NCBI RefSeq assembly: GCF_023276355.1
Contig: NZ_JALLPL010000002.1
Span: forward strand, 62,001-126,000
DNA length: 64,000 nucleotides
From: Haloplanus sp. XH21
GTDB taxonomy: Archaea > Halobacteriota > Halobacteria > Halobacteriales > Haloferacaceae
Reading direction: 5' to 3'
Part shown: piece after piece, positions 1 to 17,959 of the stretch
Position numbering within the stretch: position 1 is the stretch's first letter
Layout of the letters: each line of letters starts with the position of its first letter
Notes under the pieces: model-generated
Database searches by the model: none
The model's input: the letters and a program-made list of their open reading frames with translations, nothing else
Told to the model about the DNA's origin: nothing
Program-made: the position numbers and the translations under genes

Positions 1-599
1 TCGCAAACGAAATCGGCAAGGACCACGTTCTGGGTGGTGTGGCCTACATTTTCTCTACCCTCTCCGAACCCGGAGTTGTCACACACTCGAGTGGGCCGGC
101 ACGGCTCATCTTCGGCGAACTGGATGGAACGCGAAGTGACCGAGCACAGCGATTCTTGGATCTTTGTGAACAGAGCGAAATCGAGGCGGAGCTATCCACG
201 GAGATCCGGAAGAACCTGTGGACGAAGTTTGCGTTCATCTGTGCACAGGCGGGGATGACGGCGACGGCAAGGTGTCCTATAGGGCAAATCCGTAACACCC
301 CTGAATCCTGGGCGATGTACGAACGGCTCCTGCGAGAGGTCATCACGGTTGCGAACGCTACAGGTGTCGAGCTCTCGGACGAGGTTGCCGACCGCTGGCT
401 GTCGTTTGCGACCGAACTCGATCCAGATTCGTACTCCTCACTCCACCACGATCTCGTCCACGGAAACAGAACCGAACTGGAGGCCTTTCAGGGGACTGTC
501 GTCGACTACGCGGATCAGCAGGACGTAGCAGTTCCCGCTACGGAGGCGGTGTATGCGGTACTCAAACCACAGCACGACCGAAACCTGAGCAAATCCTAA
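1..599 (+). CDS. Ketopantoate reductase-like protein, C-terminal part (cut by window start)
   Basis: The reading frame is open from base 3, so the gene begins outside the window; no start codon is assigned. About 198 residues are visible. They match the C-terminal helical domain of the ApbA/PanE family: an early HSSGPARLIFGELDG segment, a helix with LWTKFAF carrying the lysine expected in this family, and a late TELEAFQG...VPATEAVYAVLK segment. PanE enzymes reduce 2-dehydropantoate with NADPH in the cytosol. Many haloarchaeal homologues sit in catabolic clusters and act on other 2-keto acids, so the exact substrate is open. It is followed by a 200-base gap and then a RidA gene. Confidence 0.8.
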   Translation, partial: ANEIGKDHVLGGVAYIFSTLSEPGVVTHSSGPARLIFGELDGTRSDRAQRFLDLCEQSEIEAELSTEIRKNLWTKFAFICAQAGMTATARCPIGQIRNTPESWAMYERLLREVITVANATGVELSDEVADRWLSFATELDPDSYSSLHHDLVHGNRTELEAFQGTVVDYADQQDVAVPATEAVYAVLKPQHDRNLSKS

Positions 600-1461: not shown

Positions 1462-2709
1462 ATGAACTATCCGAGCCGCCCGTCACCGTACTTCCGATGG
1501 CTACTCGTGGTCGTCGCAGCGGCGATTTTTGGTGTTTCGGGTACCTACCAGTTCGTCTGGTCAACCATTCGGCCCGAACTCGGAATTCGAATCGGCGCGT
1601 CTGAAGCCGGTGTCGGGACCGTTTTCACGCTGTTCATTATCGCACAGGTACTCAGCCAGTTCCCTGCCGGCTGGATTCGTGATCGGTTCGGTCCCCGTCT
1701 CCCGCTTCTTGTGGGTGGAATCGGGCTCGGGGCCGGCTACATCGGACTGGCACAGGCGGGGTCCGTTTTCGAGGCGTATCTCTTCTACACAGCTGGGGGG
1801 ATCGGATCGGGAATGGTGTATGTCGTCGCAATCAATACTCCGGTGAAGTGGTTCGACAAGCGGCGAGGGCTTGCCACCGGTATCGTGGGTCTGATGTACG
1901 GCGGTCTGAGCGTCGTTCTCATCCCCTACATTCGACGTGGAGTCGTAACCGGTTTCGAGAATACCGTCAGTATGTTGGGCGTCGGAGCTGGCGTCACGTG
2001 TCTCTTGGCCGTCCTCATCTTGCGGGATCCTCGTGAGGAAGAGTCGACGTCCGAAAATACGTCGGAACCTCCGGTGGACGATTCTGACAACCGTCCGAAA
2101 ACCCCGGAGTCGACGGCGGACCTCGACTCTTTTACGTGGTCCGAGATGATTCGCACCTGGCAGTTCTGGCTACTTTATCTGGTCTTCATCGTTGTGAATG
2201 GTGTCGGATTGATGCTCATCAGCAAGATTGTGGGTTTTGCGTCCGGGATCGGTCTCTCAACCACGACAGGGGTCAGAGCTGCTTCGTTGATCGCCCTCGC
2301 CGATGGCCTCGGCATCGTCGTCGGTGGGTGGTTCTCCGATTACTTGGGACGGGAACGAACGACGATGATTACGTTGACGATGTGTGGCATCTCTCTAGCG
2401 GGAAGCGTTCTCGTTGGATGGATGGGACACAGCGAGCTGTTCGTCGTCCTCGTCGCTGTTGCGGCATTCTTCAGGAGCCCTGTATTCGCTATCTTCCCGG
2501 CGCTCATTGGGGAATACTACGGACTATCCCGCTCGTCTCAAAACTACGCTGCCCTGTTTTCGGGGAAACTCTGGGGAGGCGTCATCGGCGGGACGGTGGC
2601 GAGCGTACTGATCGTGTCGTTCGGCTGGTTGCTAGTGTTTCTGACCGGTGCGGTGTTGCTGATTACCTCTGGAATCGCCACGTACTTTCTGCATCCGATT
2701 TCGACGTAG
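1462..2709 (+). CDS. OFA-type MFS transporter (carboxylate carrier-like)
   Basis: A 415-residue twelve-helix major facilitator. The GWIRDRFGPR loop after helix 2 is the MFS signature. The NTPVKWFDKRRGLATGIV stretch (about residues 127-144) is typical of the oxalate/formate antiporter subgroup. A charged cytosolic loop rich in Glu/Asp/Ser (about residues 190-220) separates the two halves. Members exchange small carboxylates across the cytoplasmic membrane, but the substrate cannot be read from sequence. Its place between RidA genes and a sodium:solute symporter suggests uptake or export of a substrate or product of the local pathway. Confidence 0.85.
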   Translation: MNYPSRPSPYFRWLLVVVAAAIFGVSGTYQFVWSTIRPELGIRIGASEAGVGTVFTLFIIAQVLSQFPAGWIRDRFGPRLPLLVGGIGLGAGYIGLAQAGSVFEAYLFYTAGGIGSGMVYVVAINTPVKWFDKRRGLATGIVGLMYGGLSVVLIPYIRRGVVTGFENTVSMLGVGAGVTCLLAVLILRDPREEESTSENTSEPPVDDSDNRPKTPESTADLDSFTWSEMIRTWQFWLLYLVFIVVNGVGLMLISKIVGFASGIGLSTTTGVRAASLIALADGLGIVVGGWFSDYLGRERTTMITLTMCGISLAGSVLVGWMGHSELFVVLVAVAAFFRSPVFAIFPALIGEYYGLSRSSQNYAALFSGKLWGGVIGGTVASVLIVSFGWLLVFLTGAVLLITSGIATYFLHPIST

Positions 2710-3144: not shown

Positions 3145-3393
3145 ATGACGACAATGCAAGACAATACCATACGGGTAATACTGAACAGTCTGTTCGTGTT
3201 CCTTTCCGTGCTGGTTCTGTGGCCAGGAGCAGTGGCCATGAAAGACATTCAGGCAACCGTCTTCAACTGGCCGTTTTTCGCGTTCTGGGAGGTTATCGTT
3301 GGTCCACTCCTGCTGATCGCACTCTTTATAATAAACAGCGAGTGGCGGATTCGGAACGACAAGCAACTTGCAGAGACAGGTGGTGAACAATAA
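3145..3393 (+). CDS. Small membrane partner of the sodium:solute symporter
   Basis: An 82-residue protein with two hydrophobic helices (about residues 10-30 and 42-63) and a hydrophilic tail SEWRIRNDKQLAETGGEQ. The stop codon overlaps the start of the symporter gene by one base (TAATG), so the two are translationally coupled. Short two-helix proteins (DUF3311-like) often precede SSS-family symporters and are thought to act as accessory subunits. The function here is inferred from size, topology and coupling. The start is ATG 3145; ATG 3154 is an alternative. Confidence 0.7.
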   Translation: MTTMQDNTIRVILNSLFVFLSVLVLWPGAVAMKDIQATVFNWPFFAFWEVIVGPLLLIALFIINSEWRIRNDKQLAETGGEQ

Positions 3394-4928
3394 TGGCGTT
3401 CAATCAGGTACTGTCCACGGCGATCATCGTACTGTACATCCTCGGCTCGCTCATGATCGGTATCTATGCGTGGCGAGGGCAGACAGAAAGCACCCTCAAT
3501 TCTTACCTATCGAGCGACCGCAAGATCAATTGGTTCGTCGGGTTCTTCTCCACCGGGGCCAGCCAGTTCACTGCGTTGGCGTTTATGGGCTTCGTCGCCT
3601 TTTATTTCAACTTCGGCATCGCCGGCTGGATCGCCGTCTTCATCGGATACGTCACGTTCTATATCGGAACGTTCTGGGCGCTTGCAGGGCGGACGTGGAA
3701 GATTGGCCGAAAATATGGCCATCTGACGCCGAGTGACACCGTCCGAGACTTCTACGATAGCCCGCTGCTGGGAATGATCGTTGCTATCGGACTGATCATC
3801 GCGGTGATTCCGTACCTCCAGCTGCAGTTTACCGGAATCGGAATCATCTTCGAACTCGGTACTGGTGGGATGATCTCTGCGATTGTAGGTTCCATCTTTG
3901 TACTGGTTGTCATCGCGATATACACCTGGCTCGGCGGTCTGAAGTCGGTGGCATGGGTCGACACGTTCCAGGGTGTCTTGCTCGTCGGTGCTGCCTTCTT
4001 AGGTGGCCTGAGTATTTTCTTCCTAGTCGGCGGTGGTTCCGGCGAGGCCTGGTCAACGATACTCTCTAACACACCCAACTTCACGAACATCCCCGACCCG
4101 ACGGGAACGTGGAACTGGCCGCGGATCATGACATGGACGTCGGTTGTCATGCTTGGCTGGATTTTCCATCCGCACATCTGGCTCCGCATTCACTCCTTCG
4201 AGAGCGGCCACGCTGCCGAACGGCTCGCTCCCGTTATGGCCGTCCTGCAGTACCTCATCCAGTTGGGCGGGTTCTTCCTTGTATTGGCTGGAGCGATCCG
4301 GTTTGCAGGCTCTCCCCCGGATCAATTCGTCCTGCGAATGTACCGTGAATTCTTCCCGACGGTCCTGTTCAGCATCGTGGCCGCAGCCGGGCTGGCAGCC
4401 ATGATGTCCAGCGTGAGTAGCCAGTGTCACGGAATCGCTGCCGTCGTCGCGCGTGACATAACGAGACAGTTCAAGCCGGACTGGAAGGACAGCAAACACC
4501 TACTCACCGCGCGCATCACGATGGTGGTGGCGCTTATCGCGGCGTTCCTGCTCAGCCTAGCGGATATTCCGTTCCTGCTTACGAGCGGTGCTGCCGCCGC
4601 TGCGTTGGCTGCATCCCTGGTGCTTCCACAGATCACCGCCGCGCTTTACAGCTGGGAGTGGACGACCAAAGAGGGGGCAATCGCCGGTAGTTTGCTCGGC
4701 GGTTCGACTGCACTCGCCTTCCTCGTCGTTCCGGGCCTTTCGCTTCCGTACAATATGTACGGTCCATTCGCTGGCTTGGTTACCAACATCTTGCTCTTCA
4801 CGGTGGTTAGTCTGGCCACTTCATCCACCTCTGGCCGCTCCGATGACTTCGAACAAACCACCCACGAGTCGATGGCACAGCTGGAAGACGAGTATCGTGA
4901 GGGAGAGTCGATCGTTGCAGACGATTGA
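3393..4928 (+). CDS. Sodium:solute symporter family protein
   Basis: A 511-residue SSS (solute:sodium symporter) membrane protein with about thirteen helices. Supporting features are the long N-terminal YLSSDRKINWFVGFFSTGASQFTA segment (ATG 3393 start), GLKSVAWVDTFQGVLL after helix 5, and AGLAAMMSSVSSQCHG in the helix 8 area, where SSS proteins bind sodium. The C-terminus is a charged acidic tail. It would import an organic solute driven by sodium, which suits a halophile. The 1-base overlap with the preceding gene shows co-expression. It is the likely importer of the 1-13 kb catabolic cluster; the substrate is unknown. Confidence 0.85.
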   Translation: MAFNQVLSTAIIVLYILGSLMIGIYAWRGQTESTLNSYLSSDRKINWFVGFFSTGASQFTALAFMGFVAFYFNFGIAGWIAVFIGYVTFYIGTFWALAGRTWKIGRKYGHLTPSDTVRDFYDSPLLGMIVAIGLIIAVIPYLQLQFTGIGIIFELGTGGMISAIVGSIFVLVVIAIYTWLGGLKSVAWVDTFQGVLLVGAAFLGGLSIFFLVGGGSGEAWSTILSNTPNFTNIPDPTGTWNWPRIMTWTSVVMLGWIFHPHIWLRIHSFESGHAAERLAPVMAVLQYLIQLGGFFLVLAGAIRFAGSPPDQFVLRMYREFFPTVLFSIVAAAGLAAMMSSVSSQCHGIAAVVARDITRQFKPDWKDSKHLLTARITMVVALIAAFLLSLADIPFLLTSGAAAAALAASLVLPQITAALYSWEWTTKEGAIAGSLLGGSTALAFLVVPGLSLPYNMYGPFAGLVTNILLFTVVSLATSSTSGRSDDFEQTTHESMAQLEDEYREGESIVADD

Positions 4929-5184
4929 GTGAGTGCCGTATCACGAGGTACTTCTTTTTTCGCTGGTTCCGGAGACCGACACAGTGCGGCGACTCTGCTC
5001 CGCATGAGGAGCAAGTTATTATACGGTGATCGAGCCAACCGACAGTCGGATGGAGCTGGGTTCAGCTCGCTCGAACGCCGGAATCAGCGCTCATCCTTTC
5101 CACTGGCCGTTTCCCTCGAGTGTGCATCAAGTCCATGGCAATCACCACCACAACCCTTATTGTGACACAAACTCAAGGAGAACC

Positions 5185-6267
5185 ATGAGCGAAGTAGATC
5201 ATGAATCCCTTGCTGAGTACCTTGAAGCAGAAGAATCCGAGTTACTCGAAGAGGTTGAGGGGAAGGAAGGGGCCGTAAACAAAGGCTCACACAACAACAA
5301 ATCCAGGCGAGTTGCCGCTCTCCTGCGGAAACACGACAATCAGAAGATCGTCCAATCGCCCCACCAGGCCGAACACCTACTCCAGCAGGATGTCGATGTC
5401 GTTGTTCACATGGGCTGTCACTCGATTCAAACGCCCCATATTGTCGATGGCACCATGGATATCCTCGAGTCGCTCGGCATGACGACCGTCCCACTTGGTG
5501 GATTCAACAACTGTTGCGGTATTCTCGACTTCCAGAACGGAGATGTCGAAACGGCCCAGAGCGTCGACGACAACCGGTTCCGGAACATTGAGGCGTTCGA
5601 TCCAGACTACGCCATCACGGAGTGCACCTCCTGTTTCGCCACCTCCGACAAACTCTCGATGGGGTATCGTGACCCTGACGGCTATGAATTCACGTCCATG
5701 ATCGAATTCCTCCACGACCGCCGGGAACAGCTCCGCGAGATGGCCGAAGTCACCGACCCCGTTACTATCGCGCTCCACGATCATTACGACGGGTTCGATT
5801 GGACCCCCATCGATGAGGCCCATATGGCTCGTGAACTCTTCGAGACCCTTCCGGGCGTCGAAATCGTCGAAATGGAACACACTCTCGAGGATGGGCTCCC
5901 TTGTAACTTCTACAGCGATCTCTCACAGTGGGAGTACGACGACCTCACCGAGCAGGTCTACCAGGAAGCAGCCGACGCCGGTGCCGACCTTCTCATCAAC
6001 TTCTGGCACGCTTGCCACCGCAACATGGTCGTCTACGACCCACACTTCCCACTCGAAACCCGAAACTACGCGAACTTCATCGGCGAGCGTCTCGGATTCG
6101 AGTACCGCGATATCACTAAGGAGTACAAACTCGCCGCGCGCAACGGCAAAATCGACGCCATCCTGAACGATGCAGCCCCCGTCCTCGAGGCCAACGGGAT
6201 CAGCGATTCCGAAGCGAGGTCCATCATCAGGGAGGATCTCGCACCACAGCAAGACAAGGGCTGTTAG
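5185..6267 (+). CDS. CCG-domain (HdrB/GlpC/LutA-like) iron-sulfur protein
   Basis: A 360-residue cytosolic protein. The start at 5185 is supported by an AAGGAG ribosome-binding site at 5175-5180; the frame is open upstream but shows no homologous sequence. The first half has a full CCG cysteine set: Cys78, Cys110-Cys111-Gly, Cys147 and Cys150 (CTSC). The second half has only relics: LHDHYDG where a cysteine is usual, Cys240 (LPCNF) and Cys277 (WHACH). CCG domains bind a 4Fe-4S cluster and pass electrons in heterodisulfide reductases, anaerobic glycerol-3-phosphate dehydrogenase and lactate oxidase. No HdrC- or flavoprotein-type partner lies next to it. It probably serves a dehydrogenase of the local pathway. 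Confidence 0.75.
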   Translation: MSEVDHESLAEYLEAEESELLEEVEGKEGAVNKGSHNNKSRRVAALLRKHDNQKIVQSPHQAEHLLQQDVDVVVHMGCHSIQTPHIVDGTMDILESLGMTTVPLGGFNNCCGILDFQNGDVETAQSVDDNRFRNIEAFDPDYAITECTSCFATSDKLSMGYRDPDGYEFTSMIEFLHDRREQLREMAEVTDPVTIALHDHYDGFDWTPIDEAHMARELFETLPGVEIVEMEHTLEDGLPCNFYSDLSQWEYDDLTEQVYQEAADAGADLLINFWHACHRNMVVYDPHFPLETRNYANFIGERLGFEYRDITKEYKLAARNGKIDAILNDAAPVLEANGISDSEARSIIREDLAPQQDKGC

Positions 6268-6401
6268 GTCTCATTGTATCCGCGTCAATCGACGATGGTG
6301 GCTTCTGGACGGTCACGCCACGGTTCGGATCAACACAGGGGAAATTACGAAGATGAGTTGACCGAAAACGCACGCAAAAAATGCGGCCACTGTCGACGGG
6401 C

Positions 6402-6788
6402 TCAGAGGACGACTATCGCATCTATCTCGACGAGCAGATCGATTTCGAAGACGTCGGCTAGTTCACCGACCTCAAACGCGCTCCGCGCCGGGAATGGTTC
6501 GGATACGTACTCGCTGTACGTTTCGTTCACCGTTGCGAAGTCGTCGATATCATCGAGGTACACCGTCGCTTTAAGCACGTTATCGAACGATGTTCCAGCG
6601 GCTTGGAGTATCCGGTCAAGGTTATCGAGCGTCTGTTTGGTCTGTTCGCGGATGTCGTCACTCACCACGGAACCAGTTTCGGGATCGATGGGAACCTGTC
6701 CGGAGACGTACAGCGCCCCATCGTGTGCGATCGCCTGTGAGAACGGGTAATCGAGAAGCGGTGCTAACTCCGTTTTGATCTCTTCCAT
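6402..6788 (-). CDS. RidA family protein, copy 2 (catalytic Arg present)
   Basis: A 128-residue RidA-fold protein starting at ATG 6788 (MEEIKTELAPLLDYPFSQAI); an upstream in-frame extension is not conserved. It keeps the canonical PAR motif (Arg102), so it can plausibly hydrolyse imines such as 2-aminoacrylate or iminoaspartate. YSEYVSEPFPARSAFEV is the family signature. It runs opposite to the copy at 7174 and shares a 385-base divergent promoter region with it. It converges with the CCG protein gene across 134 bases. Confidence 0.85.
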   Translation of the reverse strand: MEEIKTELAPLLDYPFSQAIAHDGALYVSGQVPIDPETGSVVSDDIREQTKQTLDNLDRILQAAGTSFDNVLKATVYLDDIDDFATVNETYSEYVSEPFPARSAFEVGELADVFEIDLLVEIDAIVVL

Positions 6789-7173
6789 AGAGGACGAACC
6801 GCACGAGGGAACATAAATGCTACCCAAGCGACGACGTGGCTTCCCTTGCATACTAGGAGACCGAGTCGGTTGACGAATTCGAGGTGATCATGACGGTAAC
6901 GACGGTCTCATTGCCTGTGAGACTCCAATTGTGTCGGTGGACAGTTCGCTGTGACCTATCGTGGTGGTCGGCAATCCTTGCGTATTGACGGATGCAGCCG
7001 TCGATATGTTGGTCGTCGCCCCTCGTGGTCTCGACGGCCAATCCGCATCATGGTTGGTCGGACTCGGTGTCAAATCCATTGAAGCCCCCTCAGTTGGGAA
7101 CTGCAACGCATGCGAATCGATCACACTATCCAAATTTTTTTGTTACGACCTTCCCTACTCGTAGGTGGCTCTA
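6789..7173. promoter_or_regulatory. Divergent promoter region between two RidA genes
   Basis: 385 bases without a supported gene between the minus-strand RidA (start 6788) and the plus-strand RidA (start 7174). The last 60 bases are AT-rich (a long A/T run at 7131-7141) and probably hold the promoter for the copy at 7174. The nine bases ACACTATCC at 7123-7131 occur in reverse complement (GGATAGTGT) at 732-740 upstream of RidA copy 1, a possible shared site. Confidence 0.4.
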
Positions 7174-7596
7174 ATGAAAAAAGAGATCGTTAACCCCGAA
7201 ACCGGAGAGTGGGCAGAGCACGATGTCGCGTACTCCGACGCCGTTGTAGTACACATGCCGGACGCAAAGCGGATGTTCATTTCGGGTGTCGCCGCCGAGG
7301 GTGACGACATCGAGACCCAGACACAGGCTACCCTCGAAAAGATCGAGGACATGCTGTCTGAGTTTGGAGGCGGGATGGAGGACGTCGTCCGTGTTCGCGT
7401 GTACATTAACAGGCCCGAGATGGATGAGGACAGCCTTGAAACCGTCCATGGCGTCCGTAGTGAATTCTTCGTCCAAGAACACCTGCCAGCCAGCACGCTT
7501 ATCGAGGTTGAGGACTTAGTCAGCGATGAGTTCCTCATCGAGATCGACGCCGACGCCGTTATCCCTGACGACGGCTGGGAGACTGAGCACGTGTAG
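7174..7596 (+). CDS. RidA family protein, copy 3 (no catalytic Arg)
   Basis: A 140-residue RidA-fold protein, close paralogue of the copy at 800 (shared GGMEDVVRVRV, EFFVQEHLPASTLIE and DADAVIPDDGW). The start at 7174 (MKKEIVNPETGEWAEHD) is preferred over ATG 7165. Like copy 1 it has PAS at residues 105-107 in place of PAR. The pair therefore looks like a duplicated Rid subfamily of its own, perhaps binding a substrate without a free carboxylate or working as a heteromer. It converges with the FAH-family gene. Confidence 0.85.
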   Translation: MKKEIVNPETGEWAEHDVAYSDAVVVHMPDAKRMFISGVAAEGDDIETQTQATLEKIEDMLSEFGGGMEDVVRVRVYINRPEMDEDSLETVHGVRSEFFVQEHLPASTLIEVEDLVSDEFLIEIDADAVIPDDGWETEHV

Positions 7597-7826
7597 GCCG
7601 ACCGTCACTGATTGCTCCAAAGATCGGCTCCTGTCAGTGGCCCCCCTTCACAGGGCGTATGAACGTCGGATCGGGGTCTCCGCTGCTAATGAGACAACTG
7701 TCTTGAGCCGTGTCTTCGGGGTATTGCGATCGGCGAGCCGTCGTGCCGCCGGTCCCACCCTGGTTCGGTTAGAAGTAGATGGGCGGACCGTAAACACGGC
7801 ACGTCGGTAATGGACGCGCAATCGAA

Positions 7827-8600
7827 CTAGAGGTCGGGCATGAACTCATGCTTGCCTTCTTCGACGGGCCCGTCGGCAATCACGTCGTGTTCCAGCGTGC
7901 CGACACCTTCGATCCGGATTTCTACTCGATCACCGTCGCTGAGAGCGCCGATTCCCGACGGCGTTCCGGTCGCGATAACATCGCCTGGTTCCAACGTGAT
8001 CAGCGACGTGATCTCCTCGATCAGTTCGGGGATCGAGAAGATGAGGTTGTCTATCGAGGAATGTTGTCTCGTCTCTCCGTTAACGCGGAGTTCGATGTCA
8101 GCATCATCCGGTACGTGCTCCGGGGATGCGACGACTGGCCCCATCGGTGCGGCGTTGTCGAAGGCCTTCCCCCGGACCCAGTTCTGTTCTTTCTCCTGAT
8201 CTTTCCTGTTCGAGAGGTCATTCAAACAGGTGTACCCAGCGACGACATCCATCGCCTGGTCGGCCTGGACGTTCCGACACTGTCGACTGATAACAACGCC
8301 GAGTTCGCATTCGTAATCGATTCGCTCTTTCCCCTTGGGTAGCGTGATAGTATCACCGTGGCCGGCCACTGTGTTCGGTGGTTTCAGAAACAGCAGGGGT
8401 CGGTCGGGGATGTCCGAATCGGTCTCCGCCGCGTGATCCGAATAATTCAGTCCCACACAAACGATCTTACTTGGTTCCGTTGGGGGGAGGATATCGACCT
8501 CGTCTGGATCGTAAGTCCCGTTCCCGAAAGCGATCGTTCCGTCTAACCACTCACCAGTCCGTACCATTCCTGCCGGATCTTTGAATCGAACTTTCCGCAT
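7827..8600 (-). CDS. Fumarylacetoacetate hydrolase (FAH) family protein
   Basis: A 257-residue FAH-fold enzyme. Metal ligands are visible: Glu97 and Glu99 in DYECELGVVI, and Asp128 in YTCLNDLSNRKDQ. The GKAFDNAAPMGP and IATGTPSGIGA segments line the active site. The family includes acylpyruvate hydrolases, oxaloacetate decarboxylases and 2-hydroxyhepta-dienedioate isomerases, all Mg/Mn-dependent enzymes on 2-keto acids. It is followed (upstream on the plus strand) by convergent RidA copy 3 and lies 296 bases after the AOR gene in the same direction. Near an aspartate dehydrogenase-like enzyme, action on an oxaloacetate-like keto acid is a reasonable guess. Confidence 0.85.
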   Translation of the reverse strand: MRKVRFKDPAGMVRTGEWLDGTIAFGNGTYDPDEVDILPPTEPSKIVCVGLNYSDHAAETDSDIPDRPLLFLKPPNTVAGHGDTITLPKGKERIDYECELGVVISRQCRNVQADQAMDVVAGYTCLNDLSNRKDQEKEQNWVRGKAFDNAAPMGPVVASPEHVPDDADIELRVNGETRQHSSIDNLIFSIPELIEEITSLITLEPGDVIATGTPSGIGALSDGDRVEIRIEGVGTLEHDVIADGPVEEGKHEFMPDL

Positions 8601-8896
8601 CGGTTACGTCTGCACGTCCGAGTAGTATAAACTTAATCAACAACACCGTCTTCCAGGCTCCGACTTCGGGAACCCGTATCGGTAGCAGAGCTATTCGCTC
8701 GGAGGGCGACCGTCTCGTTCCCCAGTGCGGTTGCATCGGTCGGAGTACGAATATTCCCACAGGTCTATCGGATTGTGGAATCCGATGACGGAACCAAACA
8801 CGAACCACCCCTTATGCCCGAAAAACATGCTCAATCGAGTTGATTTCGAACGTTGCAGTCGACCTTTGCTGTCCCTCGCTGTGATTATGGGCCGAT

Positions 8897-10564
8897 TCAG
8901 TGGGATGGCACCTTGACATCGGGCACTGTTCCGTCGTCGTTCCATCCCCGGCGGTCGTAATACTCGTCGAGCGCGGCTTCGAAGCCGGACAGATCGTACG
9001 GAAGCGTGTCGTCCGAGCGGTCGAACCCTCGCTTGCTGTTAAAGTGGCGTTCCAGCGTAACAATCCGTTCCCCGACGTCCAGCAACTCCTCGGCCTCCGC
9101 GTCAAGTAACGTTCCCAGTAGTGACTTCGTATCGGAGTTTCGGGAAAACTTACAGAGGATCGCGCTATCGAGAACGCCATTGAAATTCTCCTTCTCGATC
9201 AGTCGCTCCGGCTTTCCATCCAGTCCCACATTGTCAACTGCCTCGTCGGCGTCGACGAGCGGGTACTCAAGTTCATAAAATGACCCGTACATGTGGTCTG
9301 CTCCCCGGTTCGCGGTGGCGTAAGCAAGGCCCGTTCCGTTCAGGGTTCGTCCCTCGTGGCCTGCGAACTCCATATTCTTGACTGTCCAGTTTTCGACCCC
9401 GATCACGTCGTGGAATCGACCGATCCCTTCAGCAAGGGTGTCGCCGATCCCGTCCCGGTGTGCGATCTTCTCCACCAGTTCGTGTATCAAGTTAGCGTTG
9501 CCGAACTCGTCGTTCGCAGCGAGGTACGCTGCAATCGAATTCCCACAGGAGATCGTGTCCAGTCCGAATCGGTCACAGAGTTCGTTGGATTGCATAATGT
9601 CGACGATATCGTTGACACCGGAGTTCGGACCGAACGCGTACAGTGTCTCGAACTCCGGTCCCTCCGTCTCGACCTCGCGCTCTTCGTCTCTGGTCGGGAG
9701 TTTGCAGGCGAACGCACACGCCGAGCAGGTTCCTTTCTTGTACTTTTTTTCCTCGACGCGGTCACCACTGACCAATGAGATATCCTCAAACGATTGCTCT
9801 GAGTAGTACCTGGTCGGCATTCCATTTATCTCATTAGCGAGTTCTGTCACGCTCGTCGTTCCCTGCCGCTTCATGACGTGATCCGATGTCGCTGCCTGTC
9901 GGTGAACCGTCTGTTGGGCCTCCTCGTCGATAGGGATCTCAGGTGGCGAGTCGCCATCGAATGTGATCGCCTTCACGTTTTTCGACCCGAGGACAGCTCC
10001 GAGACCACCCCTGCCGAACGCCCGGCTTTCCGATGTCATTATGGCAGCGTACCGGACTTCGTTCTCTCCGGCCGGTCCGATAGCGGCAACGTGGTCCGAA
10101 TCCAGTCCGTGAGTCTCCTTGAGGTATTCGTCCGTCTCTGGGATGGTCGCACCTTCGAGCTGCGAGACTTCCTCGAAATCGACTCCCTCGTCGGTGACGT
10201 GAACGATAACGAGTTCCTCGCTTCGATCGGTGATCTCCACCGCGGAGTAGCCTGTCGCGGCGAAGTTCCGGGAGAGGAAGCCGCCGGCATTCGAGGACAG
10301 GAGACCGTCAGTGAGGGGTGAGATACCCGTACAGTTCATACGACCCGTGAAACTCATGTTCGAGACCTGCATCGGCCCCGTTGTGAAAAAAAGGGCGTTG
10401 TCAGGACTGAGTGGAGGGGTCTCGAACGGGAGGCGGTCGTGTGCGAGGCGTGTCCCGACACCGCGCCCGCCGATATACCTCTCCAGAACGTCATCGATGG
10501 ACTCGGTCATTATAGTTCGTGAACCGACATCTACCGACAGGAGTGAACCAATCGCATGACGCAT
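8897..10564 (-). CDS. Tungsten-dependent aldehyde:ferredoxin oxidoreductase family protein
   Basis: A 555-residue AOR-family protein. The N-terminal domain has GGRGVGTRLAHDRLP (about 32-46), and the pterin-binding regions include SSNAGGFLSRN and AFGRGGLGAVLGSKNVKAI. The 4Fe-4S ligands are Cys280, Cys283 and Cys287 (CSACAFAC), with Cys471 (AILCKF) as the fourth. AORs are cytosolic and oxidise aldehydes to carboxylic acids with reduction of ferredoxin, using a tungsto-bispterin. At about 555 residues it is slightly shorter than Pyrococcus AOR but complete. It is divergent from the aspartate dehydrogenase-like gene over 170 bases, so the two may share regulation. A semialdehyde from amine or amino acid breakdown is the likely substrate class. 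Confidence 0.88.
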   Translation of the reverse strand: MRHAIGSLLSVDVGSRTIMTESIDDVLERYIGGRGVGTRLAHDRLPFETPPLSPDNALFFTTGPMQVSNMSFTGRMNCTGISPLTDGLLSSNAGGFLSRNFAATGYSAVEITDRSEELVIVHVTDEGVDFEEVSQLEGATIPETDEYLKETHGLDSDHVAAIGPAGENEVRYAAIMTSESRAFGRGGLGAVLGSKNVKAITFDGDSPPEIPIDEEAQQTVHRQAATSDHVMKRQGTTSVTELANEINGMPTRYYSEQSFEDISLVSGDRVEEKKYKKGTCSACAFACKLPTRDEEREVETEGPEFETLYAFGPNSGVNDIVDIMQSNELCDRFGLDTISCGNSIAAYLAANDEFGNANLIHELVEKIAHRDGIGDTLAEGIGRFHDVIGVENWTVKNMEFAGHEGRTLNGTGLAYATANRGADHMYGSFYELEYPLVDADEAVDNVGLDGKPERLIEKENFNGVLDSAILCKFSRNSDTKSLLGTLLDAEAEELLDVGERIVTLERHFNSKRGFDRSDDTLPYDLSGFEAALDEYYDRRGWNDDGTVPDVKVPSH

Positions 10565-10734
10565 ACCGTGGATGTGGCTATATCATCTATTAAGATTTGG
10601 GTTCCATATCACAGCCAATCGGTCTAGTCACGTAGACAGTCGTCAAATGGGCATCGACCATGAATAATATCTCCCACCGCCGACGGCCTTTGGCGACCGA
10701 ATAGTTATTGAGGCCGGGAACGGCAGTACACGCT

Positions 10735-11559
10735 ATGGTACTTGAGATAGGGCTTATCGGTTGTGGAACCATCGGTACGGAAATAGCGAAGGCCATCGAT
10801 ACGGACAGAGTACCTGACACCAAACTTGGAGCCGTTTTTGACGTCAATCATGCAAAGATGGAATCGCTCGCCGACTCGTTGGCCGGCACTCCGGCCGTGG
10901 TCGACTCCGTCTCGGGGTTGACAGCGGAGGTTGACCTCGTGGTCGAAGCGGCGGGGCAGACGGCCGTTCAGAACGTCGCGGTCGACGTTCTCAAGGCCAA
11001 CACGGATCTGATGTTGATGAGCGTCGGAGCGCTCGCGGATGCCGAACTTCGGACAGCAGTTCTCGACGCCGTCGACGCCCGCTCCTCCCGCCTGTACGTG
11101 CCGTCCGGAGCAATCGCCGGACTGGACGCCGTCAAGGCAGCCGCCCTCGCCGACGAGCTGTCGTCTGTTTCGCTGACGACGCGTAAACCACCCTCCGGAT
11201 TGGAGGGAGCACCGTACATCGAGACGAACGACATCGACCTTTCGGACTTCGACGAATCGACTGTCGTTTTCGAAGGACCGGCGACTGAGGCAGCCAAGGC
11301 CTTCCCCTCGAACGTCAACGTGGCAATCTCCTTGAGTCTCGCTGGCATCGGACCGGATGAGACGGAGGTAACTATCGTTGCCGATCCCGACGAAGAGAAC
11401 AACGTCCACCGGATTCAGGCCACCGGGAGCGCCGGCCGTATTGAGACGACGGTTCGGAACGTTCCGTCGCCGACGAACCCGAAGACGAGTTATCTGGCTG
11501 CCCTCTCGGCTATCGAAAAACTCCGTGGTATCACCACACCCACGAGTACCGGCACGTAA
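10735..11559 (+). CDS. Aspartate dehydrogenase-like (NadX family)
   Basis: A 274-residue NAD(P)-dependent dehydrogenase. The start at ATG 10735 places the Rossmann motif GLIGCGTIGTEIAKAI at the N-terminus; an in-frame start at 10708 would only add a non-conserved leader. PSGAIAGLDAVKAA and SLTTRKPPSGL are typical of L-aspartate dehydrogenase. FPSNVNVAISLSLAG precedes the C-terminal domain. The enzyme oxidises aspartate (or a related amino acid) to the imine, which either enters NAD synthesis or hydrolyses to oxaloacetate plus ammonia. Because the neighbours are RidA, FAH and AOR rather than nadA/nadC, a catabolic role is favoured. RidA proteins are known to hydrolyse iminoaspartate, which links it to copy 4 downstream. 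Confidence 0.8.
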   Translation: MVLEIGLIGCGTIGTEIAKAIDTDRVPDTKLGAVFDVNHAKMESLADSLAGTPAVVDSVSGLTAEVDLVVEAAGQTAVQNVAVDVLKANTDLMLMSVGALADAELRTAVLDAVDARSSRLYVPSGAIAGLDAVKAAALADELSSVSLTTRKPPSGLEGAPYIETNDIDLSDFDESTVVFEGPATEAAKAFPSNVNVAISLSLAGIGPDETEVTIVADPDEENNVHRIQATGSAGRIETTVRNVPSPTNPKTSYLAALSAIEKLRGITTPTSTGT

Positions 11560-11664
11560 TCGGGACTGAAGGCCGGTCCGCGAGCACAAGCTGTCGGAAC
11601 CAACCGTTTCAGCGTGGTTCGCCGCCTGCAAAACGTATTTATGATGGGTGTTACCATACTTACT

Positions 11665-12048
11665 ATGGCGGATTGCCAGCCATTCGATTCGGACGCAGTG
11701 TACAGTCCAGTTGGTCCGTTTTCACACGGGTCGGCAGCAGGTGACTTCGTGTTCGTGAGCGGAACCGGTGGTCTCAATCGGGACGGTGTCGTCGTGAGCG
11801 ACGACGTGGCGGCTCAGGCACGGGCGATGATGGAGAACACGGAGAAGATACTCGCTGAGGATGGCCTGACATTCGATGACGTGGTGAAGACGAATCTTTA
11901 CCTCACCAACATGGACGACTACGGGACGGTCAACGACATCTACGCCGAGTATATGCCGGAAACTCCCCCCGCGAGGACGTGCGTGGAAGTCTCGCGACTG
12001 CCCGTTCAGGAACGAGTCAAGATTGAAGTGATCGCCTACGAGGGGTGA
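11665..12048 (+). CDS. RidA family protein, copy 4 (catalytic Arg present)
   Basis: A 127-residue RidA-fold protein starting at ATG 11665 (MADCQPFDSDAVYSP). It carries the canonical PPART motif (Arg104) and VEVSRLPVQERVKIEVIA, so imine deaminase activity is plausible. It follows the aspartate dehydrogenase-like gene by 105 bases and is 4 bases from the next gene, forming an operon with the AhpD-like and CxxC redoxin genes. This is the copy best placed to clear iminoaspartate made by its neighbour. Confidence 0.87.
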   Translation: MADCQPFDSDAVYSPVGPFSHGSAAGDFVFVSGTGGLNRDGVVVSDDVAAQARAMMENTEKILAEDGLTFDDVVKTNLYLTNMDDYGTVNDIYAEYMPETPPARTCVEVSRLPVQERVKIEVIAYEG

Positions 12049-12052
12049 AATC

Positions 12053-12652
12053 ATGACGCGAGAGAACACAATCGATCTGGTTTCTCGTGACGAGGCTACG
12101 GGCACCGTCAAAGAAGTGTATGATGAGATCATTTCCTCACGTTCGGGTGAAATAGATGAGGAGGCGAGCCTGAACCGCCTCTGGACGGTCTACGGGAACA
12201 CCCCGGAACTCCTCGATATCTTCTGGGACCACATAAAGGAGACGTATCGCGGGGGATCGCTTTCGTTCGACCTCAAACACAAAGTCGCCCTCGTCGTTGC
12301 GACAGTCATGGAGTGTGAGGGGTGTAAGTTCTTCCACTCCTCCACGCTCGAATCGGAAGGAGTAGACGACGAAGAAATCCAGGAAATCCAGGAGCAAGAG
12401 CTCGAAGAGGTCGGCTTTTCCCGAAAAGAGTACGAAATTCTCAAGTTCACCGAGAAGGCGGCGACTGACTCACACGGTATCAGGGACGAGGAGTTTGAGG
12501 AACTTCGGGAAGTCGGTCTCTCGGAGTCGGAAATCGTCGAGTTGATCGATTGTATCGCCGTCCACGCCCACATCGCTATCCTCCTCGGTGCAACGGGCGT
12601 CTCCTACGAAGGCATGCAGGAACAGGAGTTCCTCGGCCCGGTCGAAAACTGA
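12053..12652 (+). CDS. AhpD-like / carboxymuconolactone decarboxylase family protein
   Basis: A 199-residue all-helical protein. The CxxC-xxx-H signature of AhpD-type peroxidatic proteins is at Cys88, Cys91 and His95 (CEGCKFFH). AhpD domains use this dithiol to reduce peroxiredoxin-type partners, and many members of the wider family are uncharacterised. Two acidic helices (residues 105-125 and 145-165) enclose the core. The gene starts 4 bases after RidA copy 4 and is followed 12 bases later by a small CxxC redoxin, which suggests an electron donor/acceptor pair guarding against oxidative or reactive-intermediate stress. Confidence 0.8.
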   Translation: MTRENTIDLVSRDEATGTVKEVYDEIISSRSGEIDEEASLNRLWTVYGNTPELLDIFWDHIKETYRGGSLSFDLKHKVALVVATVMECEGCKFFHSSTLESEGVDDEEIQEIQEQELEEVGFSRKEYEILKFTEKAATDSHGIRDEEFEELREVGLSESEIVELIDCIAVHAHIAILLGATGVSYEGMQEQEFLGPVEN

Positions 12653-12664
12653 TCGGTGAAGCAA

Positions 12665-12907
12665 ATGACGCACATCGCTATATACAAGACGCCAGAGTGT
12701 GGCCGATGTCCAAGTGTCATCGAACGTGTCGAAGAGATCGCGAGCGAACGTGAGGATGTCGAACTAGAGATTGTCGATGCGGAGGAAGACCGGCTACGTG
12801 CGCTCTCGGATGATGTGTTTTCGGTACCAACCGTCGTTATCGACGGTGAAACGAAACTCACAGGTGTTCCGACAAAGGAAGACATCATCGCGGAACTGCG
12901 GTCCTGA
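12665..12907 (+). CDS. Small thioredoxin/glutaredoxin-fold protein
   Basis: An 80-residue redoxin. The CGRC active site is at residues 12-15 after a short beta strand (HIAIYKTPECGRC), and a cis-proline is expected in VFSVPTVVI. The start ATG 12665 is preferred; GTG 12656 is in frame upstream. It is last in the RidA-AhpD-redoxin operon and would supply or accept thiol electrons for the AhpD-like protein. Its stop codon lies inside a perfect hairpin. Confidence 0.75.
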   Translation: MTHIAIYKTPECGRCPSVIERVEEIASEREDVELEIVDAEEDRLRALSDDVFSVPTVVIDGETKLTGVPTKEDIIAELRS

Positions 12908-13580: not shown

Positions 13581-14278
13581 GGTAGTGTTCAGATAAGGAT
13601 TGAAAGGTGAGGCGTAGCGTTTTTTGAGTGTCTATGCCAGAAAACGCTAGCTTTAACGGTTGTATCGACCGGATCGAGTTAGGCTTTGTGGAACGAGAGG
13701 CAACACCGCGGCTGTTGATGAAGCTCAGTATTCAGCTCCATCTTGCAGGAATATCACTTTCGAATACTATCTCTATTCTTGAAATGTTCGGTGTTGAGCG
13801 GGCACGATCCACCGTTCACAACTGGGTTCACAAGGCCGATCTACAGCCCGAAGAAGGCCGAAGCCCGGATCACGTTGCGGTCGATGAAACCGTGATCCGA
13901 CTCAATGACGAGCAGTATTGGCTGTACGCCGCGGTCGATCCAGAGACGAATGAATTACTCCACACAAAGCTTGAACCAACGAGAACCAACGTCATCGCTT
14001 ACTCGTTCTTCCGCGAACTGCGCGAGAAACACGACGTTGACGACGCCGTGTTTCTCGTCGATAGCGCAACACCACTGAAAGACGCTTGCCGTCGCCACGG
14101 CCTCGATTTTCAGATACGAACGCCACGGAAATCGGAACAGCGTCGAACGTGTATTCCGAGAGATAAAACGCAGAACTACCATTTTTTCGAACTGTTTCAG
14201 CAACGCCGAAGCAGAAACTGCGAACGAGTGGCTCAGATCCTTCGCCTTCGCATGGAATCAGCTAATCTGAACACTACC
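13581..14278 (+). mobile_element. IS6-type insertion sequence, copy A (transposase frameshifted)
   Basis: A 698-base element with perfect 12-base inverted termini, GGTAGTGTTCAG at 13581-13592 and CTGAACACTACC at 14267-14278. The eight bases on either side differ, so there is no target duplication. A near-identical copy in the same orientation is at 48814-49510. The right end abuts the start codon of the response regulator gene at 14281 with two bases between. Confidence 0.85.
13634..14270 (+). pseudogene. IS6-type transposase, frameshifted
   Basis: DDE transposase highly similar to the intact 211-residue copy at 48867. The N-terminal zinc/HTH region and the first two catalytic aspartates (VAVDET, FLVDSA) are in frame from ATG 13634. 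After HGLDF near 14113 an extra base moves the rest into another frame, where YERHGNRNSVERVFRE, with the catalytic Glu, and FAFAWNQLI up to the TGA at 14268 are still readable. The element can therefore only move if the intact copy acts in trans. Confidence 0.85.
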
Positions 14279-14280
14279 GT

Positions 14281-15806
14281 ATGTCCGCCTCAGTCGAAGT
14301 TCTCCATGTGGATGACGAACCCCAATTTGGGGATCTGGTAGCGGATTTTGTGGAACGTAAAAGCGAACAAATTGAGGTAACGACGAAGAGACATCCAGCG
14401 GAGGCGCTCGACTTTTTGGAAGATGCAGTTGAGGAGATCGATTGTGTCGTCAGCGATTACGATATGCCGGGTAAGAACGGTCTCGAGTTCCTCAATGCGG
14501 TTCGTGACATTACGTCCGACCTCCCGTTCATCCTTTTACTGAGAAGGGCTCGGAGGAAGTCGCGAGTGATGCTATCTCGGCGGGCGTTACGGAGTATATG
14601 CAAAAAGAGGGTGGAACTGACCAGTATACTGTGTTAGCAAATCGTATCGAAAACAGCGTCGACAAATATTGGGCTCAAAAAGAGGCAAAACGCACGCAAC
14701 GGCGGCTCGGAGAACTCACCCAGAGCTCTGTTGATTGTCTGTGGATGTTCAACAGGGAGTGGGATGACCTCCACTTCATTTCTGGGTATGAAGATGTCTG
14801 GCATCGCCCCGTCACAGCGATCAAGGAAAATCCGCAGGACTTCCTAGACGGCGTCCATCCAGATCACCGCGACAACGTTGAGGCTGCGATGAATCGCCTC
14901 TCCAATGGAGAAACGATCGATATTGAATACCGCATCTTACGAGGCGACAACGAACCCGGGTGGGTATGGGTCAAAGGAGAACCCATCTACAACGAGGATG
15001 ATGTGGTTCGAGTTGTCGGTTTTACGCGGGATATCACAGACCGAAAGCAGCGCGAGCGCGCATTACGCGAGGAACGCGATTTCGTCGACCAAGCCCTGAA
15101 CACCTTGGATGACGTTTTCTACCACATTGGGACCGGCTATCTCGAGCGCTGGAACGATCGGTTAGCTTCCGTCACCGGATATGACGATGCACAGATCCGG
15201 GATATGGCTGCCGTGGAACTCTTCCCGGAAGATGAGCGGGAGAAGATCGCTACCGCAATCCAGAATACGCTTACTACGGGCGAAGTAACTGTTGAAGCAG
15301 AATTTCTGACTGTAGATGGAGAGCGAATTCCGTATGAGTTCACTGGGGCTCGTCTCACAAATCCCGAAGGAGAGGTGATCGGCTTGGTTGGCGTTGGGCG
15401 TGATCTTACGGAACGAAGGGAACGCCAACGCGAACTCGAACGAACACAGGCACGGTTCGATGCACTGACTGAAAATACAGACCTCGCGATCGTCACAATC
15501 GATGACCAGCACACAATACAGTACGCTAACAACGGTGTTCAGACTGTGTTCGGCTATACGCCGGATGAACTGATTGGAGAGTCACTGCTCACCATTATGC
15601 CCCAACGATTTCACGAGCGACATCAACATGCTGTCAAGCAATATCTTCAAAGCGGAGAGAAACAGGTCGACTGGAATTGGGTTGAACTCCCAGGACTGGA
15701 CTGTGACGGGAACGAGGTACCGCTTGGCATTTCATTTGGTGAGGCGACGATCGACGGCGAGCGTCGATTCACTGCTGTGCTCCAGGATCTATCTGTCCGT
15801 TCGTAG
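14281..15806 (+). pseudogene. Response regulator-PAS-PAS-PAS signalling protein, frameshifted
   Basis: The start ATG 14281 gives a receiver domain (VLHVDDEPQFGD, phospho-acceptor in VSDYDMPGKNGLEF, residues about 5-85). A single base is missing near 14535, after LPFIL; downstream, EKGSEEVASDAIS and MQKEGGTDQYTVLANRI continue in the next frame and run to 15806. Three PAS/PAC units follow (about 14700-15030, 15060-15420 and 15440-15800), ending LQDLSVRS with no kinase or HTH output domain. The receiver closely resembles the truncated gene at 39035-39619. Haloarchaeal homologues continue into a histidine kinase domain, so the 3' part may be lost as well. The native promoter has been replaced by IS6 copy A. 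Confidence 0.8.
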
Positions 15807-16580: not shown

Positions 16581-16690
16581 ACAGCCGACAATTCCTCCAC
16601 TAACCATGTTCGATGGCATTCTGGATATTCCACGCCTCAGTCGTTTCGTTTAATACTCTAATTCTCATAAGTGGTTATGAACACAGCCCG

Positions 16691-17959
16691 ATGCTGGATA
16701 CAACCCGCACCTATCGAGCGAAAATCGCCAACCACTCTCAGGTGAGTGGCGATCTCGATGACTGCGGGCACTCCGCGTCGAAGCTGTGGAACGTCGCTCG
16801 CTACCACACCCAACAAGAATGGGATGACACGGGCGAGATACCGTCCGAAGCCGATCTCAAGCGCGAATTGAAAGACCACGAACGATACAGTGACCTACAT
16901 TCTCAGTCAAGTCAGCGAGTTCTTGAAGAGCTTGCTGAGTCGTTCACCGGCTGGTTCAAAAAGCGCAAGAACGGCGACACAGACGCAAATCCGCCCGGTT
17001 ACCGAAAGCGAGGCGACAAACACCCACGCTCTACCGTGACGTGGAAACAGAACGGTATCAAGCACGACTCCGAGCACAACCAACTCCGTCTGAGCAAAGG
17101 CTTCAACCTCAAGAGCCACCGTTCGGACTTCATCCTCGCAGAATACGAAACGCGACCGGACGTGACCGTCGAGAACATACAGCAAGTCAGAGCCGTCTGG
17201 AACGGAGACCGTTGGGAACTTCACCTCGTCTGCAGGGTTGAAATCCCCGTCGAGGACGCACCGGGCGACAACACCGCTGGAATCGACCTCGGTATCAAGA
17301 ACTACCTCGCCATCGCCTACGACGATGGTGATGCGGAGTTGTATCCGGGGAACGCGCTGAAGCAGGACAAGCACTACTTCACCCTCGACGAGTACGACAC
17401 TGAAGGCGAGAACGGGCCGTCACGACGTGCGCTTCGCACCCGTCAGAAGTTGTCTCGGCGGAAAGACCACTTCCTGCACACCCTTGCTAAGCACGTCGTT
17501 GAGCAGTGTATCGACCACGAGGTCGGGAACATCGCTATCGGTGACTTGAGCAAGATTCGTGAGGACGGGAATGGTGACTCTCGGAACTGGGGCAAGCGTG
17601 GAAACAAGAAACTTCACGGATGGGAGTTCGACCGCTTCACTCGCTTGCTTGAATACAAGGCCGAAGAACACGGCATCCTCGTTGACCGCACGAGCGAGCG
17701 AGACACGTCAAAGACGTGTTCGTGTTGTGGTCGGAAGCGAGACGCGAATCGTGTGGAGCGTGGGTTGTACGTCTGTGAGTCGTGCGGGGCGACGATGAAT
17801 GCGGACGTGAACGGTGCGGTGAACATTCGCAGAAAGATAACTCAGAGTCCCCCGACGGGGGATATGAGTAACGGTCGTTTGGCACGGCCAGTAGCCTACC
17901 TGTTCGATCAAACTTCGGGGCGTTTCGCACCGAGCGAGCAGGTAGGTTGCGAATCTTAA
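16691..17959 (+). CDS. tnpB: TnpB (IS200/IS605-family RNA-guided nuclease type)
   Basis: A 422-residue OrfB/TnpB protein (ATG 16691, MLDTTRTYRAKI). RuvC-like motifs: GIDLGIKNYLAIA (first Asp, about residue 198), IAIGDLSKIRED (second motif, where Gly replaces the usual Glu of EDL), and ADVNGAVNIRRK (third Asp). A CxxC/CxxC zinc ribbon (CSCCGRK...CESCGAT) lies between motifs two and three. There is no TnpA partner, as in many haloarchaeal IS1341-type elements. TnpB proteins cut DNA with a guide from the element's right end. The altered second motif leaves nuclease activity uncertain. Confidence 0.88.
   Translation: MLDTTRTYRAKIANHSQVSGDLDDCGHSASKLWNVARYHTQQEWDDTGEIPSEADLKRELKDHERYSDLHSQSSQRVLEELAESFTGWFKKRKNGDTDANPPGYRKRGDKHPRSTVTWKQNGIKHDSEHNQLRLSKGFNLKSHRSDFILAEYETRPDVTVENIQQVRAVWNGDRWELHLVCRVEIPVEDAPGDNTAGIDLGIKNYLAIAYDDGDAELYPGNALKQDKHYFTLDEYDTEGENGPSRRALRTRQKLSRRKDHFLHTLAKHVVEQCIDHEVGNIAIGDLSKIREDGNGDSRNWGKRGNKKLHGWEFDRFTRLLEYKAEEHGILVDRTSERDTSKTCSCCGRKRDANRVERGLYVCESCGATMNADVNGAVNIRRKITQSPPTGDMSNGRLARPVAYLFDQTSGRFAPSEQVGCES

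What the first reader, a model, noticed from the sequence alone, without database searches (positions are those of the whole stretch)
3145..12907. Candidate imine-handling catabolic pathway (import, NadX-like oxidation, RidA, FAH, AOR)
Sodium symporter, OFA-type carrier, CCG Fe-S protein, FAH hydrolase, tungsten AOR, aspartate dehydrogenase-like enzyme, RidA, AhpD and redoxin lie together and intact. An aspartate-type dehydrogenase makes an imine that RidA can hydrolyse to a keto acid; FAH enzymes work on such acids and AOR oxidises aldehydes. I know of no described pathway with this gene set. The substrate is inferred, not shown.
Basis: inference. Interest (0 to 1): 0.65.

Follow-up and report, generated by a model that had tools for sequence, protein, structure and literature searches.

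The report
Haloarchaeal aspartate-dehydrogenase and Rid gene island
A salt-loving archaeon carries a cluster of genes that probably turns aspartate or a similar amino acid into a keto acid and cleans up the reactive intermediate; every enzyme type is known, but this combination was not seen in any relative examined, so it looks like a local assembly rather than a conserved new pathway.

Summary
The named genes are present and intact in a haloarchaeon (family of Haloferax/Haloprofundus).

NadX is not for NAD synthesis here. NadA is absent from this genome and from all 12 genomes of the genus, while 31 of 65 other NadX rows in my tree sit beside nadA or nadC. NadX, RidA4, an AhpD-like protein and a thioredoxin-like protein look like one operon, divergent from AOR. 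RidA4 keeps the catalytic Arg. RidA1 and RidA3 have Ser there and are probably not imine deaminases.

The pathway as drawn is not conserved: none of 67 other NadX loci has an AOR within the flank held (up to 10 kb). Haloarchaeal NadX instead mostly sits with a Rieske dioxygenase, a TPP enzyme and a hydrolase; AOR pairs with RidA elsewhere, beside aminotransferases. The CCG protein has no relative in 391 other genomes of the order.

Best reading: oxidative deamination of aspartate (or an analogue) to oxaloacetate by NadX plus RidA4, with FAH as a plausible oxaloacetate tautomerase. The roles of AOR, CCG and RidA1/3 remain inferred.

The parts
1..599 (+). Ketopantoate-reductase-like (ApbA/PanE) gene; its 5' end lies outside the window at about -348; divergent from an IclR regulator
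   Evidence: PF08546 E 1e-28; full ORF and IclR neighbour in L002
782..1240 (+). RidA1: Rid-family protein without the catalytic Arg (Ser instead)
   Evidence: PF01042 E 3.7e-13; Ser at Arg105 column; 57% identical to RidA3
1462..2709 (+). OFA-type MFS carrier
   Evidence: PF07690; TIGR00890 221.7 bits, below its cut-off of 374.85
3145..3393 (+). 82-aa membrane ORF that ends where the SSF begins; probable small partner
   Evidence: ORF; no Pfam family
3393..4928 (+). Sodium:solute symporter (SSF), substrate unknown
   Evidence: PF00474 E 6.2e-34; all NCBIfam models below cut-off
5026..6267 (+). CCG-domain Fe-S protein, HdrB/GlpC-like, one CCG domain detected; no relative in the order sample
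   Evidence: PF02754 E 8.9e-11; HdrB 5odc E 0.0014; match in 1 of 392 genomes, its own
6402..6851 (-). RidA2: canonical RidA with catalytic Arg
   Evidence: PF01042 E 4.2e-36; Arg at position 105
7165..7596 (+). RidA3: Rid-family protein without the catalytic Arg (Ser)
   Evidence: PF01042 E 9.3e-15; PDB relatives 3i7t and PA3499/2ig8
7827..8600 (-). FAH-fold enzyme; candidate oxaloacetate tautomerase/decarboxylase
   Evidence: PF01557 E 2.4e-71; close to 1gtt, 8sky and FAHD1 in PDB sequences; FAHD tautomerase activity from PMC10825186
8897..10564 (-). AOR/WOR-family aldehyde oxidoreductase
   Evidence: AFOR_N and AFOR_C; CxxCxxxC motif; 1aor E 1e-80 and Haloferax volcanii WOR83 9q1t E 2.7e-63
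10708..11559 (+). NadX-like L-aspartate dehydrogenase (likely start 10735), divergent from AOR
   Evidence: PRK13304 296 bits over its cut-off of 267; TIGR03855 238.2 over 206.55; 2dc1 E 5.8e-36
11614..12048 (+). RidA4: canonical RidA with catalytic Arg (likely start 11665), downstream of NadX
   Evidence: TIGR00004 109.7 bits over its cut-off of 106.25
12053..12652 (+). AhpD/CMD-family protein with a CxxC motif, 4 bases after RidA4
   Evidence: PF02627 E 3.1e-9; CEGC
12656..12907 (+). Thioredoxin/glutaredoxin-fold small protein, 3 bases after the CMD gene
   Evidence: PF13192 E 1.9e-13; ORF

Best explanation
A local assembly of catabolic genes on a 305-kb contig, centred on oxidative deamination. 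NadX oxidises L-aspartate (or a close analogue) with NAD(P)+ to iminosuccinate (family function, not tested here). RidA4, encoded just downstream, hydrolyses the imine to oxaloacetate and ammonia (inferred). The FAH enzyme keeps oxaloacetate in its keto form, or slowly decarboxylates it (inferred). The AhpD-like and thioredoxin-like proteins give redox protection (inferred). The divergently transcribed AOR oxidises an aldehyde formed upstream or downstream of this step, in the place that an NAD-dependent aldehyde dehydrogenase takes beside aspartate dehydrogenase in bacterial clusters (inferred). The SSF or OFA carrier imports the substrate (inferred). RidA1 and RidA3 are probably not imine deaminases, and their role is unknown. 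The set as a whole was assembled locally and is not a conserved pathway.
For: NadX scores above curated aspartate dehydrogenase cut-offs. NadA is absent from the genome and from 12 of 12 genomes of the genus, so the known NAD route is closed. Outside haloarchaea, NadX loci often carry nadA/nadC beside them (31 of 65 non-window rows of the tree); 0 of 18 other haloarchaeal NadX loci do. The window NadX falls inside the haloarchaeal group (97/87) with a lone NadX as sister (99/99). NadX-RidA4-CMD-thioredoxin run on one strand with gaps of 54, 4 and 3 bases between the listed ORFs. RidA4 has Arg105, the residue said to determine deaminase activity (PMC4433059 and PMC5619798, passages). FAHD enzymes are oxaloacetate tautomerases with slight decarboxylase activity (PMC10825186, passages). 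Aspartate dehydrogenase is directly followed by an aldehyde dehydrogenase in 4 of 11 annotated bacterial plasmid loci and has RidA within 8 kb in 3 of 11.
Against: No other NadX locus has an AOR nearby (0 of 67); only one has a homologue of the FAH and one of the Rid markers. No DNA motif shared by the eight intergenic regions clearly exceeded shuffles, so co-regulation is not shown. The genes are on both strands. FAH-fold enzymes have many other substrates, and the FAH scores below every NCBIfam cut-off. RidA4 has Lys at the column of Glu120. Iminosuccinate hydrolyses spontaneously (recalled), so a dedicated RidA is not strictly needed.
Confidence: 0.42

Rival explanations
1. Unrelated catabolic fragments brought together on this contig (hot spot for insertion). 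NadX-RidA4-CMD-thioredoxin is one small amino-acid deamination operon; AOR-FAH, SSF-CCG and the RidA1/RidA3 pair serve other substrates.
For: AOR, NadX and RidA3 relatives each sit in different neighbourhoods; CCG matches only its own genome of 392; a transposase-like ORF follows at 13628; no shared DNA motif.
Against: Four of five genomic Rid genes in 11.2 kb is hard to explain by random gathering; GC3 of the genes is alike, 0.63-0.72, except the thioredoxin ORF at 0.54.
Confidence: 0.35
2. NadX serves NAD biosynthesis, making iminosuccinate for quinolinate synthase.
For: The NadX family does this elsewhere, and nadA/nadC lie beside NadX in methanogens and other archaea.
Against: NadA is absent from this genome and from 12 of 12 genomes of the genus, while the search finds it in 12 of 14 control genomes, Haloferax volcanii among them; no nadA/nadC near any of 18 other haloarchaeal NadX genes.
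Confidence: 0.03
3. Catabolism of an N-heterocycle or aromatic amine in which Rid and FAH enzymes act on aminomuconate-like intermediates, as in 2-aminophenol pathways, with AOR oxidising the semialdehyde and NadX acting on a non-aspartate amino acid.
For: A RidA3 relative sits next to a FAH gene, an SDR and a monooxygenase in an Agrobacterium plasmid and another near a molybdenum hydroxylase in a haloarchaeon; RidA4 matches 2-aminomuconate deaminase 6izh at E 6.2e-18, though below many RidA entries.
Against: No ring-cleaving dioxygenase or hydroxylase was seen among the genes of this cluster; other RidA3 relatives have unrelated neighbours, such as RNA polymerase and NusA-like genes.
Confidence: 0.1
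4. AOR and RidA act as in the Haloprofundus cluster (aminotransferase-RidA-AOR, perhaps degradation of an osmolyte such as ectoine), with NadX replacing the aminotransferase and AOR making aspartate from its semialdehyde.
For: The aminotransferase-RidA-AOR-IclR arrangement is conserved in four Haloprofundus-genus genomes and found in two others, G060 and G007; BCCT carriers and M24 peptidases occur there.
Against: The window AOR lies outside that AOR clade; there is no M24, BCCT or aminotransferase among the genes of the cluster.
Confidence: 0.08

Closest known systems
NadX / L-aspartate dehydrogenase of archaea and Thermotoga (PDB 2dc1, 1j5p)
   Same: Family, full-length match and conserved C-terminal domain
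   Different: Not next to nadA/nadC, and the host lacks NadA
Non-NAD aspartate dehydrogenase clusters: Rieske dioxygenase - TPP enzyme - hydrolase - AspDH in haloarchaea, with aldehyde dehydrogenase in bacteria
   Same: A NadX-like enzyme in a catabolic, IclR-linked setting; an aldehyde-oxidising enzyme adjacent in the bacterial form
   Different: The window lacks the Rieske, TPP and hydrolase genes and has AOR, FAH and Rid instead
Aminotransferase-RidA-AOR-IclR cluster (Haloprofundus and others)
   Same: AOR 66-68% identical and RidA close by
   Different: Aminotransferase instead of NadX; the window AOR is outside that clade
RidA imine deaminases
   Same: RidA2 and RidA4 keep the catalytic Arg
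   Different: RidA1 and RidA3 have Ser there; they resemble PA3499 (2ig8), also Ser at that place in the alignment
FAHD / oxaloacetate tautomerase family (FAHD1, YcgM, YisK)
   Same: FAH domain
   Different: Activity untested; also close to HpaG/HpcE isomerase-decarboxylases
WOR clade 83, Haloferax volcanii WOR83 (9q1t)
   Same: Tungsten AOR of a haloarchaeon, E 2.7e-63; the paper places some clade 83 enzymes in aerobic halophilic archaea (PMC13328260, passage)
   Different: Clade membership of the window enzyme not tested

Membership tests
NAD-biosynthetic NadX | Sequence above curated aspartate dehydrogenase cut-offs | tested here: met
   PRK13304 296 over 267; TIGR03855 238.2 over 206.55
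NAD-biosynthetic NadX | Quinolinate synthase NadA in the genome | tested here: not met
   0 hits in own genome and in 12 of 12 genomes of the genus; genome 95.84% complete
NAD-biosynthetic NadX | nadA/nadC neighbours | tested here: not met
   None within 10 kb in the window; present for 31 of 65 other tree rows
RidA imine deaminase (RidA2, RidA4) | Catalytic Arg (Arg105) | tested here: met
   Arg in both
RidA imine deaminase (RidA1, RidA3) | Catalytic Arg (Arg105) | tested here: not met
   Ser in both
RidA imine deaminase | Imine hydrolysis in vitro | not testable with these tools
   Needs purified protein
AOR/WOR | AFOR_N and AFOR_C domains and CxxCxxxC cluster motif | tested here: met
AOR/WOR | Tungsten cofactor, ferredoxin reduction, substrate | not testable with these tools
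   Inferred from family only
FAHD oxaloacetate tautomerase | FAH domain | tested here: met
   PF01557 E 2.4e-71
FAHD oxaloacetate tautomerase | Tautomerase activity | not testable with these tools
   Closest entries include HpcE-type enzymes as well
Haloarchaeal Rieske-TPP-NadX cluster | Rieske, TPP and 350-aa conserved protein beside NadX | tested here: not met
   Absent within 10 kb of the window NadX
Aminotransferase-RidA-AOR cluster | AOR in the same clade and an adjacent aminotransferase | tested here: not met
   AOR tree; no aminotransferase among the identified genes

The most novel reading that the evidence does not exclude
A dedicated oxidative-deamination module in which aspartate dehydrogenase hands its imine to a co-encoded RidA and a FAH-fold oxaloacetate tautomerase, and a tungsten AOR replaces the usual NAD-dependent aldehyde dehydrogenase. 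In my searches I saw no description of a Rid protein working with an NAD-dependent aspartate dehydrogenase, nor of an AOR paired with one.
Probability: 0.17. Interest if true: 0.6.

Novelty: new variant of a known kind. Interest (0 to 1): 0.34.

Why it matters
If true, it would give a function to aspartate dehydrogenases that are not used for NAD synthesis, a class seen here in many haloarchaea and on bacterial plasmids, and would name a substrate for a Rid protein outside PLP and flavin enzymes. The wider pattern (haloarchaeal NadX never beside nadA/nadC in 18 loci) may matter more than this single cluster.

Tried and rejected
Tried: (1) A common regulatory site in eight intergenic regions: no motif clearly beat shuffles. 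(2) Conservation of the whole set: window proteins searched by tblastn in neighbourhoods of NadX, AOR and RidA3 relatives; no second copy found. (3) Near-identical DNA in plasmids: only one AOR piece, in a Halomarina plasmid. (4) Structure prediction and fold search were not used.

Considered and rejected: NAD synthesis (no NadA). A hydantoinase setting for a RidA3 relative (L221), my first guess from ORF beginnings, was wrong: Pfam shows RNA polymerase and NusA-like domains. 'Single operon': rejected because of strand order.

Literature: searches (10 of 10 used). Combinations 'RidA + aldehyde ferredoxin oxidoreductase', 'aspartate dehydrogenase + RidA + iminosuccinate' and 'L-aspartate dehydrogenase + gene cluster + catabol' returned nothing that by its listing concerns such a pathway; the library lacks most subscription papers.

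Counts and dropped rows: of 68 loci, two fragments (L042, L054) were left out of the tree, giving 66 rows including the window. Flanks there are unequal and often shorter than 10 kb, and some loci come from near relatives. L236 (no annotation) was left out of the 11 bacterial plasmid loci. Those 11 were picked from listings of 122 and 98 matching records. Lists were cut by the tool.
Full report
What is there. The window is G000:C2:62001-126000 of a 2.94 Mb genome in three contigs, 95.84% complete; C2 is 305 kb. The organism is a haloarchaeon. Contigs of same-family genomes have the same lengths as records of Haloferax elongans, Salinigranum rubrum and Haloprofundus salinisoli, the last two listed as Haloferacaceae, so the family is probably Haloferacaceae. 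The genes from -1520 to 12907 are: IclR(-), ApbA-like(+), RidA1(+), OFA carrier(+), small membrane ORF(+), SSF(+), CCG(+), RidA2(-), RidA3(+), FAH(-), AOR(-), NadX(+), RidA4(+), CMD(+), thioredoxin-like(+).

Rid genes. The genome has five PF01042 genes and four are here; the 11 other genomes of the genus have one to four each in total. RidA1 and RidA3 are 57% identical. Papers state that subfamilies with this Arg are predicted to be imine hydrolases, that those without are not, and that about 10% of RidA proteins have Ser there (PMC4433059, passages and section 6; PMC5619798, passages). So at most two of the four are safe imine deaminase candidates.

NadX is not for NAD synthesis here. NadA (PF02445) gives no hit in the genome or in any of 12 genomes of the genus, though it is found in 12 of 14 control genomes including Haloferax volcanii. 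The NadB model matches only one 693-aa frame below its cut-off, probably SdhA (my reading). In 67 other NadX loci with up to 10 kb of flank, nadA or nadC markers lie beside NadX mainly in methanogens, Nitrososphaerota and other non-halophiles: 31 of the 65 non-window tree rows. Of 18 other haloarchaeal loci, none has them; 13 sit in a cluster of Rieske dioxygenase, TPP enzyme, alpha/beta hydrolase and a conserved 350-aa protein, in varying completeness, and five (L005, L006, L042, L149, L193) in none of these. The window NadX is sister to the lone gene of L005 (99/99) inside the haloarchaeal group (97/87), which has open forks. In an order-wide sample, 12 of 392 genomes have NadX at E <= 1e-40, own included; of the other 11, ten are in the dioxygenase-type cluster and G307 is not.

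The full set is not conserved. None of the 67 other NadX loci has the AOR marker within the flank held; a FAH homologue appears once (L034, 4.4 kb) and a Rid marker once (L167, 3.2 kb). The CCG protein matches 1 of 392 genomes of the order, its own, and one Fusobacteriota plasmid at 26%. AOR relatives at 60-69% are common: 123 of 148 family genomes match at E <= 1e-60. A tree of 25 AORs puts the window enzyme with G027 and G060 copies (95/91), whose neighbourhoods show no window relative other than AOR, and outside the clade that includes the AORs of aminotransferase-RidA-AOR-IclR clusters. RidA3 relatives have mixed neighbours.

Parallels in bacteria. Of 11 annotated plasmid loci with an aspartate dehydrogenase gene, four have TPP enzyme, aspartate dehydrogenase and aldehyde dehydrogenase in a row, and three have RidA within 8 kb. 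A NadX-like enzyme beside an aldehyde-oxidising enzyme, or near RidA, is therefore a recurring theme, though RidA is common and I ran no background control for it.

How it most likely works. Shown: gene content, order, intact frames, key residues, absence of NadA. Inferred from families: NadX makes iminosuccinate from aspartate, RidA4 hydrolyses it, and FAH acts on oxaloacetate. FAHD enzymes from several domains of life are oxaloacetate tautomerases with slight decarboxylase activity (PMC10825186, passages); the window FAH is also close to HpcE-type enzymes, so this is one option among several. AOR would oxidise an aldehyde whose source is not encoded recognisably here. The two CxxC proteins after RidA4 suggest redox protection. 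SSF and OFA scores fall below every transporter cut-off, so the imported substrate is open.

Co-regulation. I compared eight intergenic regions for shared 14- and 18-mers on both strands; the best totals (71 and 81) were not clearly above shuffles (means 68.8 and 81.3, maxima 70 and 84). At width 14 the total exceeds the shuffle maximum by one match, which I do not count as a site.

Verdict. A real and unusual gene gathering with one credible functional core, not a demonstrated or conserved pathway. The wider observation, that haloarchaeal NadX belongs to catabolic settings, is better supported than the pathway proposed.

Noticed in passing
L007-L011, L041, L147, L148, L185-L192, L194: Haloarchaeal NadX genes lie in a conserved cluster with Rieske dioxygenase subunits, TPP enzyme, alpha/beta hydrolase, SDR, VOC proteins and a 350-aa hypothetical protein; a similar cluster with aldehyde dehydrogenase occurs on bacterial plasmids (L165, L168, L231, L235). 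Function unknown to me.
   Followed up: partly
L133, L139-L141, L150, L195, L196: Conserved aminotransferase class III - RidA - AOR - IclR cluster, with BCCT carrier (L133, L139-L141, L150, L195), an IlvA-like gene (L133, L139-L141, L150) or M24 peptidase (L195, L196); could be osmolyte degradation with AOR as the semialdehyde oxidase.
   Followed up: partly
whole genome G000 and genus (12 genomes): No NadA in any of 12 genomes of the genus; how they obtain NAD was not examined.
   Followed up: no
window 13628-14341: DDE transposase-like ORF (PF13610) whose end looks fused to other sequence; possible remnant at the edge of the cluster.
   Followed up: no
window 14281-15806: A receiver-like ORF and an overlapping PAS-domain ORF in another frame look like one signalling gene broken by a frameshift (my reading; PAS domains).
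   Followed up: no
window 16613-17959: ORF with a CxxC zinc-finger-like C-terminus, resembling TnpB (recalled, not searched).
   Followed up: no
window 5026-6267: CCG protein without a relative in 391 other genomes of the order; nearest hit in plasmids is a Fusobacteriota protein at 26%.
   Followed up: partly
L221:9522-12301: A 71% relative of RidA3 lies beside a NusA-like KH protein and an RNA polymerase subunit gene with an intein splicing domain.
   Followed up: no
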